A stretch of DNA of 20,097 nt from NCBI GenBank assembly GCA_900551915.1, contig URXT01000035.1, positions 1 to 20,097 on the forward strand, read 5' to 3'. Position 1 is the first letter of the stretch, and each line of letters starts with the position of its first letter. Source of the stretch: an uncultured bacterium (GTDB lineage Bacteria > Cyanobacteriota > Vampirovibrionia > Gastranaerophilales > Gastranaerophilaceae). Shown one piece after another: positions 2,523-19,994 of the stretch. The notes beneath the pieces are model-generated. The model was not told the DNA's origin, searched no databases, and was given only the letters and a program-made list of their open reading frames with translations. Both the position numbers and the translations under genes were made by a program.

Positions 2523-2789
2523 TTAATCTACAATAGTCCAGTCTTTGGGCAATTCTTCGTACACCATTTTGAGGAGTTTGTCCGGTGGAATGTAAAATGC
2601 TTCTGAAAGTTTGCAAAAAGTTGTGATTTGCGGGTCAAGTTTGCCTGTTTCAGCAAGAAGAAGAGTTGTTTTTGAGAGGTTTATTTCATAAGAAATAGAG
2701 CGGGCTGAACGTTTGCTTTCTTCCCGTAATTTTTTTATTACCCTGCCAAAAGCCTGTATAAATTCCTGCTTTTTGTCTTTTGTTTGCAT
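2523..2789 (-). CDS. Small XRE-family helix-turn-helix regulator
   Basis: An 88-residue protein that is almost entirely one Cro/C1-type DNA-binding domain. A leading amphipathic helix (FGRVIKKLREES, 14-25) is followed by the helix-turn-helix, roughly residues 30-58 (SISYEINLSKTTLLLAETGK), then helices containing PQITTFCKLSEAF. There is no sensor or dimerisation domain beyond a short tail, so it probably acts as a simple dimeric repressor or activator. It is divergent from the prepilin-like gene; the two start regions are about 80 nt apart and enclose a perfect 20-bp palindrome, the obvious candidate operator. It ends 2 nt from the convergent aminotransferase. The start ATG 2789 lacks a strong Shine-Dalgarno. 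The regulatory target is inferred from position only. Confidence 0.85.
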   Translation of the reverse strand: MQTKDKKQEFIQAFGRVIKKLREESKRSARSISYEINLSKTTLLLAETGKLDPQITTFCKLSEAFYIPPDKLLKMVYEELPKDWTIVD

Positions 2790-2812
2790 ATTTTCATGAT
2801 ATAGTTTATAAT
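2783..2812 (+). promoter_or_regulatory. Promoter of the prepilin-like gene
   Basis: A perfect TATAAT is at 2807-2812 with TTTGCA at 2783-2788 (4 of 6 matches to TTGACA) and an 18-nt spacer. The predicted transcription start near 2819 falls on the edge of the 20-bp palindrome. The -35 overlaps the start codon of the divergent XRE gene. Confidence 0.5.
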
Positions 2813-2818
2813 CAGTGT

Positions 2819-2838
2819 ATGGACATAATTATGTCCAT
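2819..2838. promoter_or_regulatory. Perfect 20-bp palindrome, candidate operator
   Basis: ATGGACATAATTATGTCCAT is a perfect inverted repeat with no spacer, lying between the divergent XRE regulator and the prepilin-like gene. It starts at about the predicted +1 of the latter. Half-site length and symmetry suit a dimer of a Cro/C1-type protein. A regulator bound here would block the prepilin promoter and could also affect its own gene. Confidence 0.6.
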
Positions 2839-2866
2839 GCCAGTTAAAAATATAGGAGATTTCAAT

Positions 2867-3589
2867 ATGCATTATACAAAAGCTTTTACTATGGCAGAAG
2901 TTCTTATCACACTTGGTATTATTGGAATAATAGCAGCCATGACACTTCCTGCTATTATCCATAGACGTGAGACGAAAATATTAGAAACCCGCTTTAAAAA
3001 GTGTTACAGCAATGCTGCTCAGGCACTTTTGATGACAAAGTTTGCTCTTGGAGTGGATAACCTTCACCGTTCGTTTGCAACTTATAACGGCAAGGAGTAT
3101 GTTAATTCTGACATGTTTATAAATGAGTTTTACAAGCAGCTAAATGTTGTTGAAACGCGAGATTATAAAAAAATACCTCTTAACTATAACAGAACAAAGG
3201 CTGTTCCTTATAATGAAACAACCGGCGGTTTTATGCATTCTATTACCTGTATGCCGACGAAAGTTCTTCCGGACGGTTCTTCTATATGTACACATATATG
3301 GTCAAGGACAATCTCTGTTACAGTTGATGTTAATGGACCGGTTAACGGGCCAAACGCATTCGGACATGATATCTTTATGTTTAGAGTTGATGCAAACCAA
3401 GACATGCTGACAGGACAAAAACCTGGAAGCGGGAATATAGATCCAGACAGCCAGTATGCCGAAACAGATAACCGCCCCTGCTCTATAAAAATATCAACTG
3501 CCGGAAATGGATTGGGTTGTTCGTATTATGCACTTAGAAATGCATGTCCGGACGGTGTTGGGAAAACTTACTGGGATTGCCTGCCGTAG
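2867..3589 (+). CDS. Prepilin-type N-terminal domain secreted/surface protein
   Basis: A 240-residue protein with a class III (type IV prepilin / pseudopilin) leader: MHYTKA then FTMAEVLITLGIIGIIAAMTLP. A prepilin peptidase would cut after Ala6, leaving Phe at +1 and Glu11 as the conserved +5 Glu, followed by a hydrophobic assembly helix (to about residue 28). The globular part has seven cysteines (46, 128, 141, 205, 218, 227, 238), enough for disulphides, and VDVNGPVNGPNAFGHDIF (153-170), which resembles Asp/Asn-rich metal-binding loops in minor pilin-like proteins. An upstream in-frame ATG at 2780 was rejected because ATG 2867 has the Shine-Dalgarno AGGAGAT at 2854-2860 and the leader begins there. 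The gene is isolated from other pilus genes. It is probably controlled through the palindrome at 2819-2838. Minor pilin, adhesin or T2SS pseudopilin cannot be separated. Confidence 0.88.
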   Translation: MHYTKAFTMAEVLITLGIIGIIAAMTLPAIIHRRETKILETRFKKCYSNAAQALLMTKFALGVDNLHRSFATYNGKEYVNSDMFINEFYKQLNVVETRDYKKIPLNYNRTKAVPYNETTGGFMHSITCMPTKVLPDGSSICTHIWSRTISVTVDVNGPVNGPNAFGHDIFMFRVDANQDMLTGQKPGSGNIDPDSQYAETDNRPCSIKISTAGNGLGCSYYALRNACPDGVGKTYWDCLP

Positions 3590-5571: not shown

Positions 5572-6996
5572 TTATGCGACAAGTTTTCCGTTTTTGATGT
5601 CTTGAGCAAGCTGTTTTTCAATTTGTTCTTTTACTTTAAACTGTCTGTTATCTTTGTCTGCAAATCTCAATGCAACCATTATTACCGGTGCAACAATTCC
5701 GAGTGCTCCAATGCAGGCGCCGATGTTCTTTCTGATGGAACCTCTTTTGAGTTTTCTCAAATCTTTTAAGAAGGCTTCTAAGATTTCCTCCTCTTTCATT
5801 TCCGGTTTGTTGTTGTGCATTTTTTCTGTAAATCTTGCAAACTGGTCGTAAACTTTTCCAAGTTTTTCATTGACTCCTCTAACTTCTGATAAATCAATGT
5901 ATTTTCTTGTGTCAACTGCACTGTTCAAGTCTTTTTTGTCAATTACGCTGATAATATCAGACATTTTGGACATTTTAACAATAATATTGTCTTTGTTGAG
6001 TTTGTTGCTTATGAAAGCGTAAAGGTCTGCGTCTTTCTTGAGTTGTGAAAATGCCTGAAGTGTTGTTTTTAAATCCTTGTTTTTCAAAGCGGCTTTAAGC
6101 TCTTCGCTTTCAATTACCCTTGCGTCAAGCTGGATGTTTCTGTCATGGTTTTTCTCTGCTGAATTTTCAAAGTGCTTCTGGATTTTTTCGCCTAAGAAAT
6201 ACATAAATGCCCAGAAACTTCCTTCTTTTACAATGTAGCCGACTGTATCCTGCGGAGTTCTGGATTCGAAAATTCTTTCAGCTGTGATTGAACCGTCTAC
6301 AAGCATCAGGTTTTTGCTAGGACTGAACATGAAGTCCTGAATACCTGTAAAGGAAGTGTTTTCGCCTGATTTTTTGTTATTTTTGGTATTGTCTTTGTGA
6401 ACAGCCTGGAAAGCAGTTGGAACTTTTTCAAGTTTTGTTGAGATTTCCGTTTTTTGCTTTTGGGCTTCGTCTGACGTTTTGTTCTGCTGAAGCTCGTTCG
6501 CGTGCTTTTTCAGGTAATCTTCCTTAATATGTTCCTCGATATGTTTATGTCTGAACTTTGTTAAACCATAATATGAAAGGATTGTGAGTAAAGTTGAAGC
6601 AACGAATTTACCAAATGTCAGATCTTTAAACTTTTTAGCGGAATTTCCTGCTTTTTCCAAAGCCTCTTGGATTTCTTTTGTCGGAGCATTTTCTTTTACT
6701 TTTTTGAAGACTTCGGGGTCTTTTAGAACTCTCACGTCGATTTTCGGGTCAAATCCCATTGGCTTGAAAAGTGTCCAGTCAAGAAGTTTTTTGTAAACCG
6801 GAATTCCAAAAAGCCAGATTGCCTGAGTTCCGAATTCATCTATAAATCTGTCTCTTCCTTCAGCTTCATCACCTGTAATATACGATGCGGCTGTAAGTCC
6901 TGTGCTGTTTGCGATGTCTTTTATTGCCAGCGGCACAAGTGAATTGCTGTTTCCTAATGTTGAGTATATTTTGCTTGCTGAAATTGCGGGTATCAT
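5572..6996 (-). CDS. Membrane-associated protein of unknown function, 474 aa
   Basis: I do not recognise a functional family. The N-terminus has a compact, conserved-looking patch (GDEAEGRDRFIDEFGTQAIW, 42-61, then LFGIPVYKKLLDW, 62-74). A first hydrophobic segment lies at about 127-147. Then come a long charged, Lys/Glu/Gln-rich stretch (150-215), a second weak hydrophobic patch (260-269), a helical charged region (285-420) and a strong final hydrophobic segment NIGACIGALGIVAPVIMVAL (424-443) followed by a charged tail. There is no signal peptide; two membrane passes with a large soluble middle are plausible. My recollection is that such proteins recur in Gastranaerophilales genomes without assigned function, but this was not checked. 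The start at 6996 is backed by AAAGGAC 10 nt upstream. It converges on the 165-bp palindromic element. Confidence 0.85.
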   Translation of the reverse strand: MIPAISASKIYSTLGNSNSLVPLAIKDIANSTGLTAASYITGDEAEGRDRFIDEFGTQAIWLFGIPVYKKLLDWTLFKPMGFDPKIDVRVLKDPEVFKKVKENAPTKEIQEALEKAGNSAKKFKDLTFGKFVASTLLTILSYYGLTKFRHKHIEEHIKEDYLKKHANELQQNKTSDEAQKQKTEISTKLEKVPTAFQAVHKDNTKNNKKSGENTSFTGIQDFMFSPSKNLMLVDGSITAERIFESRTPQDTVGYIVKEGSFWAFMYFLGEKIQKHFENSAEKNHDRNIQLDARVIESEELKAALKNKDLKTTLQAFSQLKKDADLYAFISNKLNKDNIIVKMSKMSDIISVIDKKDLNSAVDTRKYIDLSEVRGVNEKLGKVYDQFARFTEKMHNNKPEMKEEEILEAFLKDLRKLKRGSIRKNIGACIGALGIVAPVIMVALRFADKDNRQFKVKEQIEKQLAQDIKNGKLVA

Positions 6997-7584: not shown

Positions 7585-8562
7585 ATGAATAAAGTAGAAG
7601 TCAGTGTAATTGTTCCGGTTTATAATGTTGGAAAGTTTTTGGCGAAATGCCTGGAAAGCCTTGTCGGACAAACTTTTAAAAATATTGAGATTATATGTAT
7701 AAATGACGGCTCAACTGACAATTCTCTGGAAATTCTGAATTCGTTTGCAGGTAAAGATGAAAGAATAATCCTTGTAAACCAGCCTAATCAAGGCGTCAGC
7801 AAAGTAAGAAACTGCGGTCTGGAAATGGCAAGGGGAAAGTTTCTTCTTTTTATTGACGGCGATGATTATATTGCGTCTGATTTTGTGGAAAAACTTTATG
7901 CTAAAGCTTGCAAAACCGGTGCGGAGATTACAGCCGGAAATATTGTATACGACGAAGAAGGCAATTTAATCAGAAACAATTTCATTTCCAAGCAGACTTT
8001 TAAAATTAATAAAGAAATACTTGTTTCAATAAATGAAAAGGCTTCATTTGCAAAATCAGTCATTATATGCGGCAAGCTTTTTGCAGCGGATTTTGTCCGC
8101 AAAAATAATCTTAAATTTATGGAAGGCTGCAGATTTGAAGACAACGAGTTTTCTTTTTTATCTACGGTATTAGCAGACAAAGTAGCACTGGAGAAAGATG
8201 CCGAATATTATTATGTAATGCATTCGGCCTCCTTGATGGCAAATGTTTTTAATACGGAAACCGTTTTTGATTTTATCAAAGTTTTTAAAGAAATTTCTGT
8301 AAAAATGAAAGATTTGACTGCTGAAAATCGTATTAACCCTCAATATTTGTCTGTTTTTAATGCGCATATGACAAACGCGTTTTATAATACTTTCAAATCT
8401 GCTTCCGAAACTTACAAATCAGAATTCCGGAAACAGGCTGTGGAGCTTCTGAAAAATATTGACACGCACAACAAATATTTTGACGCAAAAACCCTCAAAA
8501 GGTATAACAAACTTTTGGGAATTTCTGAACCTTTCTGGAAGAAATTTGCGATTTTTAAATAA
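7585..8562 (+). CDS. Family 2 (GT-A) glycosyltransferase
   Basis: A 325-residue GT2 enzyme that transfers a sugar from a nucleotide-sugar to a surface glycan or LPS precursor. The N-terminal GT-A domain is complete: VSVIVPVYNVGKFLAKCLES (6-25), INDGSTDNS (39-47), NQGVSKVRN (68-76), and the metal-binding DGDD (91-94) in LLFIDGDDYI. RFEDNEFSF (about 183-191) supplies the ED pair typical of the catalytic base region. There is no transmembrane segment, so it is probably cytosolic and peripheral. Donor and acceptor cannot be read. It stands alone, behind the 147-bp palindrome, and its last 8 nt overlap the 3' end of the convergent zinc-ribbon gene. Distance to waaA (over 6 kb) does not support a shared LPS cluster. 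Confidence 0.92.
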   Translation: MNKVEVSVIVPVYNVGKFLAKCLESLVGQTFKNIEIICINDGSTDNSLEILNSFAGKDERIILVNQPNQGVSKVRNCGLEMARGKFLLFIDGDDYIASDFVEKLYAKACKTGAEITAGNIVYDEEGNLIRNNFISKQTFKINKEILVSINEKASFAKSVIICGKLFAADFVRKNNLKFMEGCRFEDNEFSFLSTVLADKVALEKDAEYYYVMHSASLMANVFNTETVFDFIKVFKEISVKMKDLTAENRINPQYLSVFNAHMTNAFYNTFKSASETYKSEFRKQAVELLKNIDTHNKYFDAKTLKRYNKLLGISEPFWKKFAIFK

Positions 8563-9502
8563 ATGTGATTTCGTAATATCCGTTGTTGAAAAGGAATTTC
8601 AGTTTGATTTTTTCACCGTTATAGTGAGCCGGCGGAGTTTTGTAATAAGGCAGACGCATTAACATAAGATAAACTTCGTCGTTTACGGATTTATTTTGCG
8701 ATTTGTAGATAAAATTTCTATTGATAAGCTTTCCGCTGTTGTCAAGCGAGAATTCAATCGCACAGTCGCCGGAGCCTTGAACTGCTGCAACGTTTAGTTT
8801 TGCAAGAAGCGCGCTCCTGATTGCGCCTTTGTAGTTCAAAAATTCGGAAGGGTTCATTTTGGGCGGTTCTTCTTTTTTGACCGGCTGTTGAACAGTTTGT
8901 TGGGTGGAGGTTGTATTTTGTACAGTATTTAAGACTGATTGCGGAAGTTTTGGTTTTGATTGGGTAGCTGGCTGCGCCGGAGGGGCTTTTTTAACCGGTT
9001 TGGAAGCCGTTGATGTTGTTTTTGAAGCTGGTTTTGGCTGAGTTTTTGCGGCTGCCGCGGGCTTTTGAGTTGTTGAAGTTGTTTGAGTTTTAGGTTTAGG
9101 TGTTTCTGGCGTTTGCACGGGTTTTGGCGAAGGCTCCGGCTTTGGAGCAGTTTCAGCAGTTTGCGTTTGAGGTTTAGCATTCTGCCATAGGCTTTCGATG
9201 TCAGGAATTGTTTTTGCAACTTCTTCTTTTTGCTTTTGTACTGTTTTTGCAGGTTTTTCTGTTTTTATAATCCATGGTATTACCGCCAAAATCAGGCAAA
9301 GACAGAAAAATCCGATTGAAAATACTTTTACCATGTCAAACTTTTTAAAATCGAAATTCTTGTGAGGCAATGGTTGCTGCTCTTTCTGAAATGTTGAGTC
9401 TTTGACCGGCGGCGCGGTAAATTCCTCGAACTCATCATTCCCGCAGGTGCAATATTCGGGTTTTTCTTTAAATTCTTCTTTACATTCTGTGCATCTGTAC
9501 AT
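8555..9502 (-). CDS. TonB/TolA-like protein with N-terminal zinc ribbon
   Basis: A 315-residue bitopic protein. Residues 1-22 form a zinc-ribbon-like CxxC...CxC (Cys4, Cys7, Cys18, Cys20), presumably cytoplasmic. One membrane helix lies at about 57-79. A long Pro/Lys/Thr/Gln-rich periplasmic linker (80-216) follows, typical of TonB or TolA, and then a C-terminal domain (220-315) beginning FLNYKGAIRSALLAKLNV with the pattern of a TonB_C/TolA domain, including CAIEFSLDNSGKLINRNF. The linker holds IPDIESLWQ (99-107) and LPQSVLNTVQN (186-196), motifs shared with its operon partners. It is the last gene of the four-gene operon; the ribosome-binding site AAGGTA overlaps the stop of the preceding gene, 3 nt away. 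No ExbB/ExbD or TolQ/TolR lies nearby. A role as envelope-spanning linker is inferred. Confidence 0.8.
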   Translation of the reverse strand: MYRCTECKEEFKEKPEYCTCGNDEFEEFTAPPVKDSTFQKEQQPLPHKNFDFKKFDMVKVFSIGFFCLCLILAVIPWIIKTEKPAKTVQKQKEEVAKTIPDIESLWQNAKPQTQTAETAPKPEPSPKPVQTPETPKPKTQTTSTTQKPAAAAKTQPKPASKTTSTASKPVKKAPPAQPATQSKPKLPQSVLNTVQNTTSTQQTVQQPVKKEEPPKMNPSEFLNYKGAIRSALLAKLNVAAVQGSGDCAIEFSLDNSGKLINRNFIYKSQNKSVNDEVYLMLMRLPYYKTPPAHYNGEKIKLKFLFNNGYYEITFI

Positions 9503-9505
9503 TTT

Positions 9506-10477
9506 TTACCTTAAAGTTTTTACTTTCTCAATATCTGAAAAATCGTTTGGTGTGCTGAATCTGTCCTGGGTTGAAATTACAAATCCGCCCGTTACATTAG
9601 TTATAACACGTTTTGTGCGCGAAGGAAAGTTTAAAATCGGCTGGCCTTGATAACTCAAAATCAGAGGTTTTAAGTAGTTTACAGCGATTGAACTGTAAGT
9701 ATCCGGAACAGCCCAGGTTCTCAGGTTTGAGATACGGCCTTTTTTGTCGACCGTGAAGGAGAATTTAAAAGCAGTTCCCAGCGGTGCTGCAATTTGTGTG
9801 TCCCGCATAATCTGGTTTTGAAGATTGCTTCGCCAAATATTCCAAACAATTATTTCCTCCTGCTCCGTCAGTGGACGTGTTTCTTCTGCCGTGTTTTCAA
9901 GAATTTGCCTGGGAGTTTGCGTCGGCTCAATTTTCGGGAGCGTAACCTTTTGAGGCTCTTGCGCTGCTGTAGAAGCCTTTGGTTCAGTTTTTTGTGTTTG
10001 ATTGTTCAAAATATCCTTCACCGACTGCGGAATTTTTGCAGTCGTGATGTTTTCGGTGGTTTGAACAGGTTTTGAGGCAGTTGTTGTAACTGTTTTTGTT
10101 GTATTTTGCGGGGGGATAGTTTTTACTGTTCGGGTCGAAGTTTTTATTTTTTCGGACTGCTTTTGAACTTCAATTGTTTTGGATTTGATGTTATTTTTGT
10201 TTTCAAGAACTTTTTCAGTCTGCTGAGGTTTTGGCGATGTTGTATTTAAGACTTTTTCAATGGTTTTAACCTGATTTAAGTCTGTATTTACTATTTTGGT
10301 TGTGTTTTCAGGAGCCTGGTGCGTAGCGTTCGGATTTTGCGCAAGTTCGGTATTTGTTATTTGAAATTCGTTTGCAGCAAATCTTACCGGCTTATTTATA
10401 CCGGGTTTTAAGACGCCGACTGCAATTGTCAGCGCTGTTAAAAATATTAAAACTGCTGTTAAATATATTTTTATCAT
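9506..10477 (-). CDS. TonB/TolA-like envelope-spanning protein
   Basis: A 323-residue protein with a single N-terminal membrane helix (4-23) and almost no cytoplasmic part. A very long Thr/Lys/Gln/Pro-rich linker (25-200) precedes a C-terminal TonB/TolA-like domain (about 203-302): LTEQEEIIVWNIWRSNLQNQ, then FKFSFTVDKKGRISNLRTWA and a final strand VITNVTGGFVIS. The linker has IPQSVKDILNN (149-159) and LPKIE (180-184), matching motifs in the neighbouring genes. Its start codon overlaps the stop of the FHA-like gene by 4 nt, so translation is coupled. It resembles TonB in layout but lacks the compact XP-repeat linker and any visible ExbB/D partner. Function in force transfer or scaffolding is inferred. 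Confidence 0.78.
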   Translation of the reverse strand: MIKIYLTAVLIFLTALTIAVGVLKPGINKPVRFAANEFQITNTELAQNPNATHQAPENTTKIVNTDLNQVKTIEKVLNTTSPKPQQTEKVLENKNNIKSKTIEVQKQSEKIKTSTRTVKTIPPQNTTKTVTTTASKPVQTTENITTAKIPQSVKDILNNQTQKTEPKASTAAQEPQKVTLPKIEPTQTPRQILENTAEETRPLTEQEEIIVWNIWRSNLQNQIMRDTQIAAPLGTAFKFSFTVDKKGRISNLRTWAVPDTYSSIAVNYLKPLILSYQGQPILNFPSRTKRVITNVTGGFVISTQDRFSTPNDFSDIEKVKTLR

Positions 10478-12072
10478 TTTCTATCCAGTTTTGAGATTAA
10501 GCCGTCACAAACAAACAACTCGTATTTTGTCCGGCTTAGAAGGTAGGTTTCTGCAATCAAAAGCGCTGTCGGCACAGTTGCCGCAACAATGCTTAAAAGT
10601 ATTCCGTTTAAGTCCGCACCGATTTCTGTCAAAAAGAACGAGGTGTTCATGCTGAATTCGATAAATATGATTGAAAGCCCTATTACAAAAAGCCTTACAC
10701 GGTCTCTTTCCAAAGTCCTTACATTTTCAAGTCCAAAGATTTCAACACCGTGCGTAAGGTAATTTCTGAAACCGTCAAGCTTGATAATGTCAGAGCCGCT
10801 GACTTTTCTCATGTTTAAAAATGCATTTGATATTGCGAAAAATGCAAACACAATCATCATTGAGGCCAGAATTAAAAACACCAGTGAAAATCTTAGACCT
10901 GAAATTCTAACCCATCCCGCAGCTTCGGGGAAGCACATCGCAAGAGTGTTTGAAACACCGTATGCTAAAAACGGCGCGGTCAAAATTCCTGCAAAAGTTT
11001 CAGCCAAACCTTTTATTTGCAGTGTTAAAATTTTGTCTTTTATATAGTTCAATTTTACAGAACTTAAACTGTTTATAAATAAATCAATCCAATTTTGGTA
11101 TTGATTTAGAACGATTTCAAAATCCTCGCGGTATTCGTATCGGTTTAATTCCAGAGAAAGCTTGTGTCCGCTGTATTTGAAATATCCGCAGGCAAATGCT
11201 ATTACCACGTTCAAAAGTACTAAAAACAGAGCGGTAAAAGTCCCGTAAAATACGCGTCCGTTCGGGTTCATATAATAAATCATATTTATGGCATAAAATA
11301 CACACATAAAAATTGTTGGAAGAATTATCAAAAAGTTTTGTGCAAATTTTGCGCCTGCCGGCGGTTTTTGCAAATCTCTGTTTTGAAGAAATAAGAAAAC
11401 ACCCTGTTTCAGTGAAAGCGAAACCGCATAAGTTAAAACCGAAAACAATCCGAGAATTTTAATGTTTGTCGGCATGTTTATAAATGCAATTGTGTCGGAA
11501 ATCGGAAGCCCCATCAAATAGTTGCATATTCCAAACGTCATAACAATTGTGCTGAAAATAAGTGCGATATTTAAGATTATTGCGGCTTTGAAGTTTAAAG
11601 AAATCCTCTTTTTAATGTCTGTTATTGCAAAAGCTATCTGTTTTGTTATGGCAATTCTGCTTTTTTCAATTGCAGATTTTTTGCTTTCCAGTTTAAGCTT
11701 AACATCAGAGCTTATCTCATGTTCGTAAGTGTCGGAAACTTCTTTTACTGCCGTTTTTTGTTCAGAAAGTGTGTCCGGCAGGTTCTCTGCTATTTTTATT
11801 CCGATAAACTCCCCGCTTTCGGCGAGTTTAAGTTTGCAGAATTTTTCGACTGAAATTTTTCCTTTAAAAGGTTCACCTCGAAAAAGGATTTTCGGATTTT
11901 CAAAATTATTTATAACCGTGCATTTTTTCGAATTTTCGTCATACTGAACAGTTAAAATAAACTCAAATCCGGCATTAATCTGATAGTCGCAGTCTGAATT
12001 TGACCCGATTATTATAAAATCTTTTTCTTTGAAAACTGTTTCTTTATTAAGTGATGAAATTATAACAGTCAT
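10474..12072 (-). CDS. Polytopic membrane protein with degenerate FHA-like N-terminal domain
   Basis: A 532-residue protein. The N-terminal 95 residues look like an FHA beta-sandwich (FIIIGSNSDCDYQIN, 19-33; later strands near 47-55, 62-65 and 88-94). The Arg after the first Gly and the Ser-Arg-x-His that bind phosphothreonine are not evident, so it may be structural, like the FHA-fold head of YscD-type secretion proteins. A charged, helical linker (100-158) leads to seven or eight membrane segments at about 162-182, 205-222, 245-268, 277-297, 357-380, 394-416, 459-478 and 488-511. I do not recognise the membrane family. The ribosome-binding site AAAGGACAA lies within the 14-nt gap after the upstream gene. 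Central position in the operon suggests it is the inner-membrane core of an assembly; this is inference. Confidence 0.75.
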   Translation of the reverse strand: MTVIISSLNKETVFKEKDFIIIGSNSDCDYQINAGFEFILTVQYDENSKKCTVINNFENPKILFRGEPFKGKISVEKFCKLKLAESGEFIGIKIAENLPDTLSEQKTAVKEVSDTYEHEISSDVKLKLESKKSAIEKSRIAITKQIAFAITDIKKRISLNFKAAIILNIALIFSTIVMTFGICNYLMGLPISDTIAFINMPTNIKILGLFSVLTYAVSLSLKQGVFLFLQNRDLQKPPAGAKFAQNFLIILPTIFMCVFYAINMIYYMNPNGRVFYGTFTALFLVLLNVVIAFACGYFKYSGHKLSLELNRYEYREDFEIVLNQYQNWIDLFINSLSSVKLNYIKDKILTLQIKGLAETFAGILTAPFLAYGVSNTLAMCFPEAAGWVRISGLRFSLVFLILASMMIVFAFFAISNAFLNMRKVSGSDIIKLDGFRNYLTHGVEIFGLENVRTLERDRVRLFVIGLSIIFIEFSMNTSFFLTEIGADLNGILLSIVAATVPTALLIAETYLLSRTKYELFVCDGLISKLDRK

Positions 12073-12086
12073 TTTTGTCCTTTCGG

Positions 12087-13355
12087 TTACTGCTGCCTGT
12101 AAAGCTGGACGGTTAATGGTTCAGTCAGCATAATTTGAAGCTGAGAGCCTTCAATTACTCTTATTTCTTCGCCTTTTGATGAAATGGTTGAAATCGCACC
12201 GGCGCCTACTCCGATTGAAGTTCCATATATTATTGCGCTTGTCGGGTCTGCTCCGAAAAGCATTGAAATAGCAGAAAGCAGAAGACCGGTTGCCGCACCG
12301 CCTGCAATTCGTTTTGTTACGTTTAGTGCTCGGGAAGAATTACCGACAATATAAACTTTATTAGTTTTCAAAGGAATTATGTTTCCGTCAGGTGTCATAA
12401 TCTCGTTAAACAGAAGCCCGATTTGTCCGTTTGCCATTGCATAAGAAGCCGCTTTTGTATCAACTGCTCTGCCGTTTAAAATACTTCCAGCGGGTGCAAT
12501 AAGCTGGCCGTTATAAATCCAGTCAGCATCAAGTTCAGCGCTAACTCGGTCATTATTTACAATGCTGTCAGAGCTTATGTCAGAAAGAAGCGCTGCTGTA
12601 AAAGTTGCACCGTCTTGAATGTATATGACGCTTCCGGTAAGAACGCTTCCTTGACCTTGATAGTTCTGAGAATTATAACTGCTTTGTACCGTGCCTGAAT
12701 TTGGATTAAAAGCTTCTCCCTGCCAGGAGGATTCAATTTTTGGAAGTTTTACAATGGCTTTTTCCTGTGTTTGAAGTTCAATCGGAGGCTCGGTTTTAGG
12801 TTCAACAACGATATTTTGCGCGGAGTTGCTGCCGTTAAACCTTGTCTGTGCTTCATCGCTAAAGTCATATTCTATTGCAGATGCATTGATAATTTCATTT
12901 TGAGGAGGTAACATTTGAGAATTTTCTGCAGTTGTGCGCATTTTTATATTTACATTGCTGTGCGCAAGGTTTGTGTAGGCCTCGCCGTAAAAGTAACTCT
13001 TCAGGCTTGAATTTCGGACTTTTTTGCTTTTGAAGTCATTATTTTTCAAAGTTTCAATAAGCTCTTTGCGCAGGCTTTCATCCTCGTTATTTGACATGTA
13101 GTAGAAATAACAGTTTTCGTTTTTATCTGCCAGAATTACAACGTAATAATATTTTTTGTTTTTATCTTCAAGAATATATGAATTTTGTCCTTTTAATGCG
13201 GATGGAAAATTCCTTTTTAAATATGGTGTTAAAACTTTTTCAACCTCAGCCGCCTTGGCATTTTTGACAGTATAAAGCCTTGATACATCAGCTGCAAAAC
13301 CCGAAGTTCCTGTCAAAATAAAAGCGCATATTAAACTAAATAATTTTTTTACCAT
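12087..13355 (-). CDS. Secreted envelope protein with VirB10/TrbI-like beta domain and glycine zipper
   Basis: A 422-residue protein with a signal peptide (MVKKLFSLICAFILTGTSGFAA, probable cut after Ala21 or Ala22). An N-terminal mixed domain (about 23-135) follows, then a low-complexity linker with LPKIESSWQ (204-212). A beta-rich domain (238-338) has GSVIYIQDGATFTAALLSDI, LIAPAGSILNGRAV and MTPDGNIIPL, resembling the C-terminal VirB10/TrbI fold. A glycine-rich hydrophobic stretch (350-390) could be a membrane-inserting zipper, and the C-terminal strand block ends LQIMLTEPLTVQLYRQQ. A TTG start at 13367 was rejected because it would precede the predicted transcription start; ATG 13355 has AGGA close upstream. 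First gene of the four-gene operon. There are no T4SS ATPases nearby, so VirB10 similarity is of fold, not of system. Confidence 0.75.
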   Translation of the reverse strand: MVKKLFSLICAFILTGTSGFAADVSRLYTVKNAKAAEVEKVLTPYLKRNFPSALKGQNSYILEDKNKKYYYVVILADKNENCYFYYMSNNEDESLRKELIETLKNNDFKSKKVRNSSLKSYFYGEAYTNLAHSNVNIKMRTTAENSQMLPPQNEIINASAIEYDFSDEAQTRFNGSNSAQNIVVEPKTEPPIELQTQEKAIVKLPKIESSWQGEAFNPNSGTVQSSYNSQNYQGQGSVLTGSVIYIQDGATFTAALLSDISSDSIVNNDRVSAELDADWIYNGQLIAPAGSILNGRAVDTKAASYAMANGQIGLLFNEIMTPDGNIIPLKTNKVYIVGNSSRALNVTKRIAGGAATGLLLSAISMLFGADPTSAIIYGTSIGVGAGAISTISSKGEEIRVIEGSQLQIMLTEPLTVQLYRQQ

Positions 13356-13369
13356 ATTCCTACACAAAT

Positions 13370-13398
13370 ATTATAGTTGTTCAGAATTCCTTTTGCAA
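13370..13398 (-). promoter_or_regulatory. Promoter of the four-gene envelope operon
   Basis: On the minus strand, TTGCAA (13398-13393), a 17-nt spacer and a perfect TATAAT (13375-13370). Transcription would start near 13363, about 8 nt before the ATG at 13355. The rest of the divergent region to 13490 carries an AT-rich TATATA (13457-13462) that could be the -10 for the vWA gene, without a convincing -35. Confidence 0.6.
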
Positions 13399-13490: not shown

Positions 13491-14324
13491 ATGAAAAAAT
13501 TATTATTAATTATTGTATTTTTAAGCCTGCTTTGGGCTTCCTCTCCGGTATTTGCGGGGGAATTTAGAATTTATACAGCAAATGGTTCTCAACAATTGCA
13601 GAGATTAACAGCCCCGCCGCGCGCGATGAGAATCCATGGAGAAGCCATTGAACTTCTCGTTGATTATTCAGGCAGTATGAGCGGCTGGATTAATCTGGCA
13701 AAAGAAGCAATAGGAATTATTCTGCCGCGTCTTCCGTATAATTCTTCTGTTGCCTTAAGAGTATTTGGCGAAAGACCGGGAACGCATCCGGAAATTACCG
13801 AGGTTTGCAAAGCTTCAAGAGTTGTCACTTCTTTTGGAAAACAGAATGAAAGAGCTGTTGTTAAAGGTCTGGCTGAGGCTAAGATAGGAGGCGGAACTCC
13901 GATTGAATTTGCATTGAGAGAAACTGTAGAAAAAGATTTAAAAAATTTAAGAGTTTATGATAAGAACAGAACCTTCAAGGCTAAGAAAATTATTCTCGTA
14001 ACTGATGGCGGCGAAGGCTGCGGCGGAGACCCCTGTGCTTATATAAGAGAAGTTATGCGAACAAGAAAAGATATCTCAATTGATGTAATTCAACTTGGAA
14101 ATGATAACCGGCTTGCCTGTCTTGCTGATGAAACTGGCGGAACTTTCCATAAAGTAAACCGAAGCAGCCAGGATTTTGAACTCGCACTGGAGAAAGCATT
14201 TAATGTCCCGCAAGGAACAGTAGCAACCCGTAAATATATGGAAAAATCCACTTACAAGCCGGCTCCAAAGAAACTTTCTGACCGCAAACAGCTTGCAACA
14301 AAGTACAAATATGTAAAATATTAA
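13491..14324 (+). CDS. Secreted von Willebrand factor A domain protein (paralogue 1)
   Basis: A 277-residue exported protein. Signal peptide 1-22 (cut after VFA). The vWA domain (about 52-240) has a complete MIDAS metal site: D58-Y-S60-G-S62, Thr136 in GGTPIE and Asp172 in LVTDGGE. Five cysteines (106, 177, 182, 210 and neighbours in GCGGDPC and ACLADE) suit a periplasmic or surface location. A basic, Pro/Lys-rich tail (241-270) ends in YKYVKY. It likely binds a protein ligand through the divalent ion. The start ATG has AGGGA 7 nt upstream. It is divergent from the envelope operon (about 135 nt between starts) and followed by a closely related copy, so a role at the surface linked to that operon is attractive but unproven. 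Confidence 0.9.
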   Translation: MKKLLLIIVFLSLLWASSPVFAGEFRIYTANGSQQLQRLTAPPRAMRIHGEAIELLVDYSGSMSGWINLAKEAIGIILPRLPYNSSVALRVFGERPGTHPEITEVCKASRVVTSFGKQNERAVVKGLAEAKIGGGTPIEFALRETVEKDLKNLRVYDKNRTFKAKKIILVTDGGEGCGGDPCAYIREVMRTRKDISIDVIQLGNDNRLACLADETGGTFHKVNRSSQDFELALEKAFNVPQGTVATRKYMEKSTYKPAPKKLSDRKQLATKYKYVKY

Positions 14325-14334
14325 TCAGTCCTAA

Positions 14335-14363
14335 TTGTATTTTACCTTCCTATGATTTATAAT
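14335..14363 (+). promoter_or_regulatory. Promoter of vWA paralogue 2
   Basis: TTGTAT (14335-14340), a 17-nt spacer and a perfect TATAAT (14358-14363) lie in the 68-nt gap between the two vWA genes, so the second copy can be transcribed on its own. A strong ribosome-binding site GGAGG (14384-14388) precedes its TTG start. Confidence 0.5.
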
Positions 14364-14392
14364 TATATAAAAATAAATTAAGCGGAGGTATT

Positions 14393-15235
14393 TTGGAAAA
14401 ACGTGTTTTATTCTCTGTAATTTTTGGAGCGGTCTTTTTTCTAAGTTTTGTCAGTTCTGCATTTGCAGCTAATAGCAGATACAATGTTTATACTCCCTCA
14501 ACTTATAAGCAGATTAATATTGTTCAAAGCCCGAAAAATTCAAGAATAAACGGCTATGCTGTGGAACTTCTTGTTGATTATTCAGGCAGCATGGGCGGCT
14601 GGATTCAGCTAGCAAAAGAAACCCTTGAATTTATTTTGCCAAAAATTCCTAAAACGACGTCGGTTGCACTTCGGGTTTTAGGTGAAAATAACGGACAGAG
14701 AGGTTTCGCCTTTGTTGATTTGTGCAGATCTACAAGACTTGTTACATTTTTCAAGCATGAAAATCAAACAAATATAGTAAAAGGATTACAAGAAGCCCAG
14801 CTTGGCGGAATGACCCCGTTAGAGTTTGCATTGCGCGAAACTATTGAAAAAGATTTACGTAGTGTCAAAGTCTTTAATAATGATAAATCAGGTGCTAAGG
14901 ATAAGAAGATAATTCTTGTCACTGATGGAAATGATACTTGTGGCGGCGATCCTTGCAAATATATAAGAGAAGTTATGCGTGTGCGAAAAGATTTTCAAAT
15001 TGATGTCGTTCAATTAGGAAATTCAACAGAGCTAATGTGCTTAAGCGCAGAAACTGGTGGAAGTTTTTATAAGGTTGACGGCAGCCGCGACAAATTTGTA
15101 AGAGCTTTTGAAAATACATTCGGCGTGCCTGTAGGAACAGTTGAACAGGGAATTAAGGAGAAAACTGGTACTGTCCAGCCCGCAAAGCCTATACCGCAAA
15201 CTCCTGCACGCGGCTATAAGTTTATAAATTTCTAA
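14393..15235 (+). CDS. Secreted von Willebrand factor A domain protein (paralogue 2)
   Basis: A 280-residue tandem paralogue of the preceding gene. Signal peptide 1-25 (cut after SAFA). The MIDAS site is complete: D62-Y-S64-G-S66, Thr141 in GGMTPLE and Asp178 in LVTDGNDTC. Cysteines in DLCRS, TCGGDPC and MCLSAE match paralogue 1. The vWA domains align almost throughout (SVALRV.GE, LEFALRETIEKDL, YIREVMR.RKD, IDVVQLGN), while the tails differ until the final YKFINF, which parallels YKYVKY in the first copy. The start codon is TTG, chosen because GGAGG lies 4 nt upstream and the signal peptide begins there. Its stop codon overlaps that of the convergent phosphatase gene by 3 nt. Gene duplication followed by tail divergence is evident; the ligand is unknown. 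Confidence 0.9.
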   Translation: MEKRVLFSVIFGAVFFLSFVSSAFAANSRYNVYTPSTYKQINIVQSPKNSRINGYAVELLVDYSGSMGGWIQLAKETLEFILPKIPKTTSVALRVLGENNGQRGFAFVDLCRSTRLVTFFKHENQTNIVKGLQEAQLGGMTPLEFALRETIEKDLRSVKVFNNDKSGAKDKKIILVTDGNDTCGGDPCKYIREVMRVRKDFQIDVVQLGNSTELMCLSAETGGSFYKVDGSRDKFVRAFENTFGVPVGTVEQGIKEKTGTVQPAKPIPQTPARGYKFINF

Positions 15236-18758: not shown

Positions 18759-19994
18759 ATGCCTCGATATTTGTATAATGCATTGAAAGAAAATAAAAAA
18801 GATGTTGTAGAGGGTGAAATTGAAGCAGTTACACCGCGTGAGGCCCGTGAAAAAATTCGTGAATTAGGCTATATGCCATTAAAAATATTTGACCCTGCCC
18901 TTGTTGTTAATGAAATGTCAGACTTTTCAGATAATCAGGGCGGAATAACTTTTCTTAGTTTAAACGACAAAATCATGTTTGTTTCAGAAGTTCAAGTCAT
19001 GCTTTCATCTGGAATAAGTATTGTAGATGCTCTTAACACTATTTACGTGAATTCTCCCAGAATGAAAGTGAAAAAAATAGCAAAAGAGCTGCAAGTTGCA
19101 ATTTTAGGTGGTAAAACTTTTGCAGAAGCTGTAAATTATTTATATCATGATGCCTTTGGAGATACATTTATTGACCTTTGTGTGACGGGTGAAAATTCTG
19201 GTGAACTTGATAAAACTTTAGACAGAATGCTTGTTATGTTGAGACAGCAGGATGAGATTAAAGGAAATATTATTCAGGCATTGATTTATCCGTGTATTGT
19301 AATTTTAATTATGTGCGGACTTTTGATACTTTTTTCAAAATTTGTATTTCCAACATTTGCTTCTGCGATTATGATGAGCGGAGCCGGTGTTGATATTCCT
19401 GTATTTGCGGCAACTGTTATGGGAACTCTTCAATTTATAGGAGATTACTGGTGGTTATGTATTTTGTCAATATTTGCCTTCTTCGGTGCTGTAAATTTTC
19501 TGGCCACATATGATAAAACAAGGGCTTTTTTTGATAAGTTGTTTTTGCAGATACCAATTATAAAGGATTTTGTTAATTATATTAATTTGGCAAATTATAT
19601 GTGTATTTTAAATATTTCATATGCAACTGGTGTGCCTTTCATGAAATCACTTGAGCTTGCAAGGCGCACAATCGGTAATACTGAAATAAAACAAAAAGCG
19701 GATTATGCAAATCGTCTTGTAGAAAAGGGGGCAACTTTATCAGACGCATTTCATAAAGCATCCTTGCTTCCGGGAGCGCTTGTCACAATGATTGCTGCCG
19801 GAGAAAAAGCCGGAAATCTTTCGAAAATGCTTCAGGATTGTGTAGATGTTATTGATAAGAAAATTGACATGGTGCTTAAAGCTTTGACTAAAGCTTTTGA
19901 ACCGACATTAATAGTTGTTTTGGGAGCCATTGTTTTTGTTATCGCAATTGCATTTTTCCAATTATATATGGGGTTAATCCAATCGCTTGTGTAA
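18759..19994 (+). CDS. GspF/PilC-family type II secretion / type IV pilus inner-membrane protein
   Basis: A 411-residue integral platform protein that, in T2SS or type IV pili, couples the cytoplasmic ATPase to pseudopilin or pilin assembly. The N-terminus MPRYLYNALKENKKDVVEGEIEA is the usual start of the family. Two homologous T2SSF domains are present: residues 69-198 with GENSGELDKTL (144-154), and 276-402 with GEKAGNLSKML (348-358). Membrane segments lie at about 172-198, 225-248 and 380-405. No GspE/PilB, PilT or prepilin peptidase is in the window; the following gene is cut off. It could serve the prepilin-like protein at 2867, but they are far apart. There is no Shine-Dalgarno; TATTAT (18747-18752) ends 6 nt before the ATG, suggesting a leaderless transcript starting right behind the clpC terminator. 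Confidence 0.92.
   Translation: MPRYLYNALKENKKDVVEGEIEAVTPREAREKIRELGYMPLKIFDPALVVNEMSDFSDNQGGITFLSLNDKIMFVSEVQVMLSSGISIVDALNTIYVNSPRMKVKKIAKELQVAILGGKTFAEAVNYLYHDAFGDTFIDLCVTGENSGELDKTLDRMLVMLRQQDEIKGNIIQALIYPCIVILIMCGLLILFSKFVFPTFASAIMMSGAGVDIPVFAATVMGTLQFIGDYWWLCILSIFAFFGAVNFLATYDKTRAFFDKLFLQIPIIKDFVNYINLANYMCILNISYATGVPFMKSLELARRTIGNTEIKQKADYANRLVEKGATLSDAFHKASLLPGALVTMIAAGEKAGNLSKMLQDCVDVIDKKIDMVLKALTKAFEPTLIVVLGAIVFVIAIAFFQLYMGLIQSLV

What the first reader, a model, noticed from the sequence alone, without database searches (positions are those of the whole stretch)
8555..13355. Candidate undescribed trans-envelope complex encoded by a four-gene operon
One promoter drives a secreted VirB10/TrbI-like glycine-zipper protein, a seven- or eight-pass membrane protein with an FHA-like head, and two different TonB/TolA-like proteins, with a 14-nt gap, a 4-nt overlap and a 3-nt gap. 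The parts could span from cytoplasm through the inner membrane and periplasm to the outer membrane. The usual partners of TonB/TolA (ExbBD, TolQR, TolB, Pal) and of VirB10 (T4SS ATPases, VirB9) are absent. I know of no named system with this set. Operon structure is seen directly; assembly and function are inferred.
Basis: partly seen in the sequence, partly recalled or inferred. Interest (0 to 1): 0.8.

Follow-up and report, generated by a model that had tools for sequence, protein, structure and literature searches.

The report
Conserved vWA–VirB10–TonB-type envelope module
A non-photosynthetic relative of cyanobacteria carries a conserved gene set that looks like an unnamed machine bridging its two membranes, built from a secretion-channel-like protein, TonB-like arms, an adhesion-type domain and an inner-membrane protein of unknown fold.

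Summary
The four-gene operon is real, with the spacings stated, in a Gastranaerophilales-type genome. It is conserved: 260 of 383 genomes of the order have a match to B (13 weak).
In the eight related genomes examined, a TonB-ExbB-ExbD-ExbD locus holds homologues of A (8 of 8) and D (7 of 8), yet no TonB-dependent receptor, TolB or VirB4 was found. C and D lack the Ser/His pattern of all eight Exb-linked TonBs.
Best reading: a derived TonB/Glt-like envelope-bridging module with B and vWA in place of ExbBD. Assembly and energy source are inferred. New variant of a known kind.

The parts
12087..13355 (-). Gene A: secreted protein, 422 aa; N-terminal alpha/beta domain (about residues 22-115), disordered linker, VirB10/TrbI-type C-terminal domain
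12846..12869 (-). YDFSDEAQ box of A (residues 163-170), in the linker before the VirB10-type domain; candidate docking peptide
   Evidence: 23 of 23 type I and 27 of 39 type II A proteins; 0 of 1442 other ORFs in these loci; variants of the form Y-x-F in 11 of the 12 others, read by eye, the twelfth being N-truncated
12174..12341 (-). Glycine-rich hairpin of A (residues 339-394), at the place of the VirB10 antenna helices (position by inference)
   Evidence: pLDDT under 50, helices 342-366 and 371-381
10474..12072 (-). Gene B: FHA-fold head plus eight transmembrane helices, 532 aa, N-in/C-in
11782..12072 (-). FHA-like head of B (residues 1-97), cytoplasmic by charge pattern
10492..11580 (-). 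Membrane domain of B (residues 165-527) with invariant Glu472 and Glu508
   Evidence: invariant in the 68 sequences of alignment A3; helices; no convincing PDB match listed, this part barely tested
9506..10477 (-). Gene C: one transmembrane helix, Pro/Thr-rich linker, about 130-aa conserved C-terminal domain, 323 aa
   Evidence: cluster of 81 members in 80 loci; no Pfam/PDB match; marginal profile match to D
8555..9502 (-). Gene D: N-terminal Cys4 zinc ribbon, one transmembrane helix, Pro-rich linker, TonB-type C-terminal domain, 315 aa
   Evidence: Cys pattern 76 of 79 ORFs; TonB_2 33 of 33 at E<=0.05, window member E 0.011; PDB top hits TonB E 0.0015
13491..14324 (+). vWA gene 1, divergent from A: secreted (by eye), DxSxS metal-site motif
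   Evidence: PF13768 E 3.6e-12; cluster 5 present in 23 of 23 type I loci
14393..15235 (+). vWA gene 2, divergent from A: secreted (by eye), DxSxS metal-site motif
   Evidence: PF13768 E 1.4e-8
13370..13398 (-). Promoter-like site TTGCAA-17-TATAAT upstream of A
   Evidence: 10 of 12 matches, best of 13 sites; 12.9 sites expected in shuffles

Best explanation
The operon plus the neighbouring vWA gene(s) encodes a trans-envelope module that shares parts with, and probably derives from, the lineage's VirB10-like/TonB/ExbB/ExbD/ExbD locus. A is exported and its VirB10-type domain with a glycine-rich hairpin sits at the outer membrane, probably as a ring. D, and by layout C, are anchored in the inner membrane and reach across the periplasm; D's TonB-type domain, and perhaps C's, dock on A, possibly through A's YDFSDEAQ box, much as TonB docks on a receptor's TonB box. 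B is the inner-membrane hub with a cytoplasmic FHA-like head, and D's zinc ribbon adds a second cytoplasmic handle. The vWA protein (membrane-tethered in type II, secreted in type I) is the periplasmic or surface binding domain. The module works like a TonB/Tol/Glt force transducer or tether that couples inner-membrane and cytoplasmic state to the outer membrane, with B (and vWA) where ExbBD would normally be. SHOWN by computation: gene order and conservation; VirB10 fold of A; FHA fold and 8 predicted helices of B; TonB family of D; homology of A and D to the Exb-linked proteins; absence of the Exb-linked TonBs' Ser/His pattern in C, D and the tethered vWA. INFERRED: assembly, location of A, docking box, energy coupling, physiological role (envelope integrity or lipid homeostasis is hinted at by MlaA/MlaD/PlsY neighbours of some type II loci).
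For: Synteny in 81 loci: vWA 81, C next to B 80, D same strand 75, A same strand upstream 61. Match to B in 260 of 383 order genomes, 13 weak. A fold VirB10. D TonB (hhalign 94.9%, E 1e-8 to Exb-linked TonB). A profile hits the Exb-linked VirB10-like protein in 8 of 8 genomes; D profile hits the Exb-linked TonB in 7 of 8 loci. No TonB-dependent receptor in 8 genomes by two families, no TolB_N, so TonB-type arms here need another outer-membrane partner. S-x(2,3)-H pattern 8 of 8 Exb-linked TonBs, 0 of 80 C, 0 of 76 D, 0 of 57 tethered vWA. Box in A. Neighbour clusters PlsY 32, MlaD 18, MlaA 16 of 58 type II loci, one representative of each tested. Published precedent: vWA force transducers beside TolQ-like motors (PMC12204202, section 8) and an FHA-TM-TonB protein, GltG (PMC3169522, passages).
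Against: No interaction data and no multimer prediction. 20 of 81 loci lack A on the same strand upstream (19 with none near, one on the other strand), one has D reversed, one has neither C nor D; 5 of 6 distant full-length loci are vWA-B-D without C, seen with short flanks. So A and C are not obligatory, or lie elsewhere. C is not shown to be TonB-like. The VirB10-type domain also occurs in SLH-fused and other secreted proteins of the lineage, so it may be a general surface module. A's model is weak in the hairpin (pLDDT under 50), so outer-membrane insertion is a guess. The loci are close relatives selected by similarity to B, not independent events. Completeness of the 8 genomes used for the absence tests is not told.
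Confidence: 0.5

Rival explanations
1. Passive tether: the module only links inner membrane, wall and outer membrane mechanically, with no energy input; vWA and the YDFSDEAQ box are structural contacts.
For: No ExbB/ExbD gene in the operon; the Ser/His pattern is absent from C, D and tethered vWA; a VirB10-type domain occurs fused to SLH repeats in the same lineage.
Against: B's large, strongly conserved 8-helix domain with invariant Glu in or next to the membrane and two cytoplasmic handles (FHA, zinc ribbon) are more than a tether needs.
Confidence: 0.22
2. C and D are extra TonB/TolA-type arms driven by the lone ExbB-ExbD-ExbD complex encoded elsewhere.
For: Exactly one ExbB per genome (8 of 8; 21 of 21 genomes with a B match in the sample); D is a TonB homologue; 2 to 13 TonB_2 matches per genome.
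Against: 0 of 76 D and 0 of 80 C have the S-x(2,3)-H pattern that all eight Exb-linked TonBs have; 4 C and 1 D have some His in or just before the helix. D has a cytoplasmic zinc ribbon; B, not ExbB, is the syntenic partner.
Confidence: 0.15
3. Export channel: A forms a VirB10-like outer-membrane pore and B the inner-membrane part of a small secretion system that exports, for example, the vWA protein or a polymer.
For: T4SS-core (VirB10-type) fold of A; polytopic B of unknown fold.
Against: No ATPase gene in the operon; VirB4 in 0 of 8 genomes; VirB9 was not searched for; vWA has its own signal-peptide-like start or membrane anchor.
Confidence: 0.1
4. Co-expressed but separate envelope proteins; no single machine.
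For: A missing upstream in 20 of 81 loci and C missing in 5 of 6 distant full-length loci; the FHA head survives alone in 8 genomes.
Against: Overlapping B/C genes and tiny gaps in the window, same order in two paralogous locus types over 81 loci.
Confidence: 0.12

Closest known systems
TonB-ExbB-ExbD (and Tol-Pal) force transducers
   Same: D belongs to the TonB C-terminal family, on one membrane helix with a Pro-rich linker; A and D homologues sit in the related genomes' own TonB-ExbB-ExbD-ExbD locus.
   Different: No ExbB/ExbD in the operon, no Ser/His pattern in C or D, cytoplasmic zinc ribbon on D, 8-helix FHA protein instead, VirB10-type partner; no TonB-dependent receptor or TolB found in 8 genomes.
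Myxococcus Agl-Glt gliding machinery (GltG, GltJ, CglB)
   Same: Inventory: FHA plus TonB-type protein (GltG: PF00498 + PF03544, table passage of PMC3169522), zinc-ribbon/TM/TonB-type protein (GltJ, domain layout recalled), vWA surface adhesin (CglB; known to me here only from a title in reference lists).
   Different: FHA is fused to an 8-helix protein, not to a TonB arm; no AglRQS-like or TPR genes noticed at the locus; VirB10-type protein added. D's NCBIfam GltJ hit (E 4e-5, 22.8 bits against a cut-off of 450) covers only the low-complexity linker.
vWA force transducers with TolQ-like motors (PMC12204202, section 8)
   Same: Inner-membrane-tethered vWA protein in a conserved envelope gene set, as in type II loci.
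   Different: No TolQ homologue recognised in the set; the tethered vWA lacks the Ser/His pattern (0 of 57) and, in the 12 helices printed there, a helix Asp; FHA-8TM and VirB10-type partners are not described in that section.
Type IV secretion VirB10/TrbI/CagY/DotG
   Same: C-terminal beta domain of A by predicted fold.
   Different: A has a signal-peptide-like start, whereas VirB10 is anchored in the inner membrane (recalled); hairpin is glycine-rich; VirB4 absent in 8 of 8 genomes.

Membership tests
TonB family (D) | TonB/TolA C-terminal domain | tested here: met
   TonB_2 matched by 33 of 33 D members at E<=0.05, TonB_C by 28; matches over the Pfam cut-off at the place of D beside B in G005, G006, G007 and G008 (by coordinates). 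The window's own D is below cut-off (13.7 against 22 bits), as is D of G002 (21.0).
TonB family (C) | TonB/TolA C-terminal domain | tested here: inconclusive
   No Pfam or PDB match; hhalign to D 38.5%, E 5.5e-5 and to TonB 1.6%, E 0.013, against E>=0.16 for the remaining 42 of 45 pairs other than D-TonB.
ExbBD-driven TonB/TolA transducer (C, D) | Ser/His motor-contact motif at the membrane helix (SHLS/His in PMC12204202; tested with my own pattern S-x(2,3)-H) | tested here: not met
   0 of 80 C and 0 of 76 D; 8 of 8 Exb-linked TonBs. 81 C and 79 D ORFs entered; 1 and 3 dropped for no clear helix.
TonB system | ExbB and ExbD in the operon | tested here: not met
   None among the window ORFs scanned; one ExbB elsewhere in each of 8 relatives.
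TonB system | TonB-dependent receptor in the genome | tested here: not met
   PF00593 and PF07715: 0 of 8 relatives. The window's own genome is not held.
Tol-Pal | TolB | tested here: not met
   PF04052 0 of 8; OmpA domain in 7 of 8, so a Pal is not excluded.
VirB10/TrbI (A) | VirB10-type C-terminal beta domain | tested here: met
   Fold. Sequence sub-threshold: TrbI 14.9 bits against 35.
Type IV secretion system | VirB4-type ATPase | tested here: not met
   PF03135 0 of 8 genomes; only one of 14 control genomes rang.
FHA domain (B head) | FHA fold | tested here: met
FHA domain (B head) | phosphothreonine-binding GR / SxxH / N-G residues | tested here: inconclusive
   Not seen in the consensus, but the motif is recalled and no structure-based residue alignment was made.
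MotA/TolQ/ExbB motor (B) | MotA_ExbB homology | tested here: inconclusive
   hhalign B membrane part vs ExbB 0.2%; the same run scored the two vWA families at 0.1%, so a negative is weak.
vWA/MIDAS (neighbours) | vWA domain with DxSxS | tested here: met
   Window vWA genes over the VWA_3 cut-off; DxSxS 54 of 54 and 58 of 58; the tethered vWA tested is only sub-threshold in Pfam (18.7 against 27 bits, L115).
Agl-Glt machinery | AglRQS motor and GltD/E/G homologues | not tested
   Compared by domain inventory only; GltG layout from a passage of PMC3169522.

The most novel reading that the evidence does not exclude
B is a previously unknown ion-driven inner-membrane energizer, unrelated to the 5:2 ExbB/TolQ/MotA motors, that uses intramembrane Glu472 and Glu508. 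It replaces ExbBD and drives TonB-type arms against a VirB10-type outer-membrane ring, which they grasp through the YDFSDEAQ box, a TonB-box analogue on a VirB10 fold. FHA and zinc-ribbon heads gate it from the cytoplasm and vWA senses or grips the outside.
Probability: 0.17. Interest if true: 0.88.

Novelty: new variant of a known kind. Interest (0 to 1): 0.64.

Why it matters
TonB-type proteins and a VirB10-type domain are encoded side by side, both in this module and in the ExbBD locus of the related genomes, where no TonB-dependent receptor or TolB was found. If they touch, VirB10-type rings are an alternative outer-membrane partner for periplasmic force transducers, which would link T4SS cores and TonB/Tol systems. 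B is a widespread, strongly conserved 8-helix family of this order that matched no Pfam or NCBIfam model.

Tried and rejected
T4SS locus: rejected, VirB4 0 of 8. Plain TonB uptake system: rejected, no receptor, no Ser/His pattern. Tol-Pal: TolB 0 of 8. B as a diverged ExbB: no support, not excluded, since the same hhalign run scored the two vWA families at 0.1%. In the PDB fold listings for B only FHA rows stood out; membrane transporters at E about 0.1 or weaker, probability under 0.3, looked like chance, and no ExbB/TolQ row was among the 50 shown. GltJ membership of D: the NCBIfam hit is linker composition. Secretin-type hits at A's N-terminus (E 0.013 and 0.005): not borne out by fold, where KA1- and BamC-like rows came up. 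A profile against PDB sequences: no VirB10, one unrelated hit at E 0.036. VirB10-like gene next to ExbB in genomes of the phylum without B: 0 of 30 loci, but only about 1.5 kb on each side and one ExbB locus per genome were seen. Literature: six searches on TonB, ExbB, VirB10, vWA, FHA, Gastranaerophilales and Glt; no listed title or abstract start described this gene set. The lists were capped (e.g. 20 of 1,120 papers, 10 of 80) and cover open-licence PMC only. Read: PMC12204202 (abstract, section 8, passages); PMC8262864, PMC3169522 and PMC12288465 (passages); the rest as listings. Not used: the third protein-database search, PHROGs and PADLOC.

Full report
OBSERVATION. The window carries, on the minus strand, A (13355-12087), B (12072-10474), C (10477-9506) and D (9502-8555) with spacings 14, -4 and 3 nt. 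The best promoter-like site (TTGCAA-17-TATAAT, 13398-13370) is upstream of A, but such sites are no commoner than in shuffles (13 against 12.9). Two vWA genes lie divergently at 13491-15235. None of the window ORFs scanned matches ExbB or ExbD. From homologues and record titles I infer a Gastranaerophilales (Melainabacteria) genome; the window's own genome is not held.

CONSERVATION. A protein search found 1010 relatives of B and 220 of A at E<=0.001, each among a capped 7997 candidates. A pattern scan of 84,980 species genomes gave 320 relatives of B, of which the best 80 loci were kept. With profiles for each family, all 81 loci (80 plus window) have a vWA gene near B, 80 have C next to B, 75 have D on the same strand (one has it reversed, five lack it, some at contig ends), and 61 have A upstream on the same strand (one has it on the other strand, 19 have none near). 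Two locus types exist: type I (23 loci, the window's kind: secreted vWA divergent, then A-B-C-D) and type II (58 loci: membrane-tethered vWA inside the operon, often A-vWA-B-C-D). B had a match in 128 of 386 phylum genomes, 44 of them with two (my count from the table), and in 260 of 383 genomes of the order; 8 and 13 of these are weak. Of 14 genomes looked at again, the 8 weak ones keep only a 99-aa FHA-like ORF (labelled, four read), five have vWA-B-D without C and one vWA-B-C (short flanks). The loci are relatives and were chosen by similarity to B, so counts are not independent events.

Each of 8 related genomes has exactly one ExbB, as do all 21 genomes with a B match in a sample of 59 from the phylum (these overlap with the 8). 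In the 8 loci read, ExbB lies in VirB10-like, TonB, ExbB, ExbD, ExbD, in 6 of 8 with a second, small VirB10-like gene in front that the A profile detects. The A profile finds the main VirB10-like protein in 8 of 8 (E 1e-42 to 1e-51; whole-genome E 4e-26 to 9e-33) and the D profile finds the TonB in 7 of 8. The same 8 genomes gave no TonB-dependent receptor, no TolB and no VirB4; each family rang in at least one of 14 control genomes. Completeness of these genomes is not told. The VirB10-like domain also occurs fused to SLH repeats and in other secreted proteins. All eight Exb-linked TonBs have a Ser-x(2,3)-His pattern at the membrane helix; PMC12204202 (section 8) describes an SHLS motif and its His as the motor contact of TolA/TonB, and my pattern is a looser stand-in for it. 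None of 80 C, 76 D and 57 tethered vWA helices have it, though 4 C and 1 D have a His there. This argues that C and D are not driven by ExbBD in the usual way.

A CANDIDATE DOCKING BOX. The octapeptide YDFSDEAQ is present in all 23 type I and 27 of 39 type II A proteins, close behind the signal peptide in short A proteins and in the linker in long ones; a heptapeptide of it is in 0 of 1442 other ORFs of these loci. Of the remaining 12 A proteins, 11 have a shorter Y-x-F box there and one is N-truncated (read by eye, after the fact). Its place recalls a TonB box, but its partner is unknown.

MECHANISM. I favour a TonB/Glt-like bridging module: A at the outer membrane, C and D as arms, B as inner-membrane hub and possible energizer, vWA as binding domain. 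Neighbour clusters of type II loci include PlsY (32 of 58), MlaD (18) and MlaA (16), one representative each tested by Pfam, which hints at envelope lipid homeostasis. The nearest parts lists are Myxococcus Glt (GltG is FHA plus TonB, PMC3169522 passage) and the vWA force transducers of PMC12204202; neither has an 8-helix FHA protein or a VirB10-type partner in what I read. The hhalign negative (B against ExbB) is weak, because the same run also missed vWA against vWA.

VERDICT. Observation confirmed; interpretation partly supported and extended by vWA, the paralogous type II locus and the Exb-linked relatives. A conserved, apparently undescribed module: a new variant of trans-envelope coupling systems. 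Six literature searches with capped lists showed no paper on this gene set.

Noticed in passing
L111-L114, L162-L165: The only ExbB of these eight genomes sits in a VirB10-like/TonB/ExbB/ExbD/ExbD locus, with no TonB-dependent receptor or TolB found; itself an odd TonB-type system worth its own study.
   Followed up: partly
L121-L128: Eight genomes keep only a 99-aa stand-alone FHA-like protein related to B's head; in the four loci read it lies beside a TolC-like gene (Pfam OEP tested for L121 only).
   Followed up: partly
L152:6012-7286: VirB10-type domain fused to SLH repeats (SLH E 4.5e-20; TrbI E 3e-5, below cut-off); similar proteins in other genomes suggest a general surface module.
   Followed up: partly
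genomes G001-G008: 2 to 13 TonB_2 matches per genome against a single ExbB, some in tandem (e.g. G001 contig 2 around 138-140 kb, G007 contig 1 around 379-381 kb).
   Followed up: no
type II loci such as L036, L038: Neighbours include MlaA (751-aa protein with a weak hydrolase match), MlaD and PlsY, plus a secreted TonB_2 protein (cluster 13, 17 of 58 loci).
   Followed up: partly
window 5572-6996: 474-aa protein without Pfam match at E<=0.01, kept near type I loci (13 of 23).
   Followed up: no
window 2780-3589 and 18759-19994: Prepilin-type methylation motif (just below cut-off) and a T2SSF/PilC-type gene: type IV pilus-like parts in the same window.
   Followed up: no
L038, L041, L076: D is split into two overlapping ORFs in these three loci.
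   Followed up: no
L038, L066, L075: Record titles say Fusobacterium, Acinetobacter and Clostridia although these loci carry the B gene set; mislabelled or mixed MAGs are likely.
   Followed up: no
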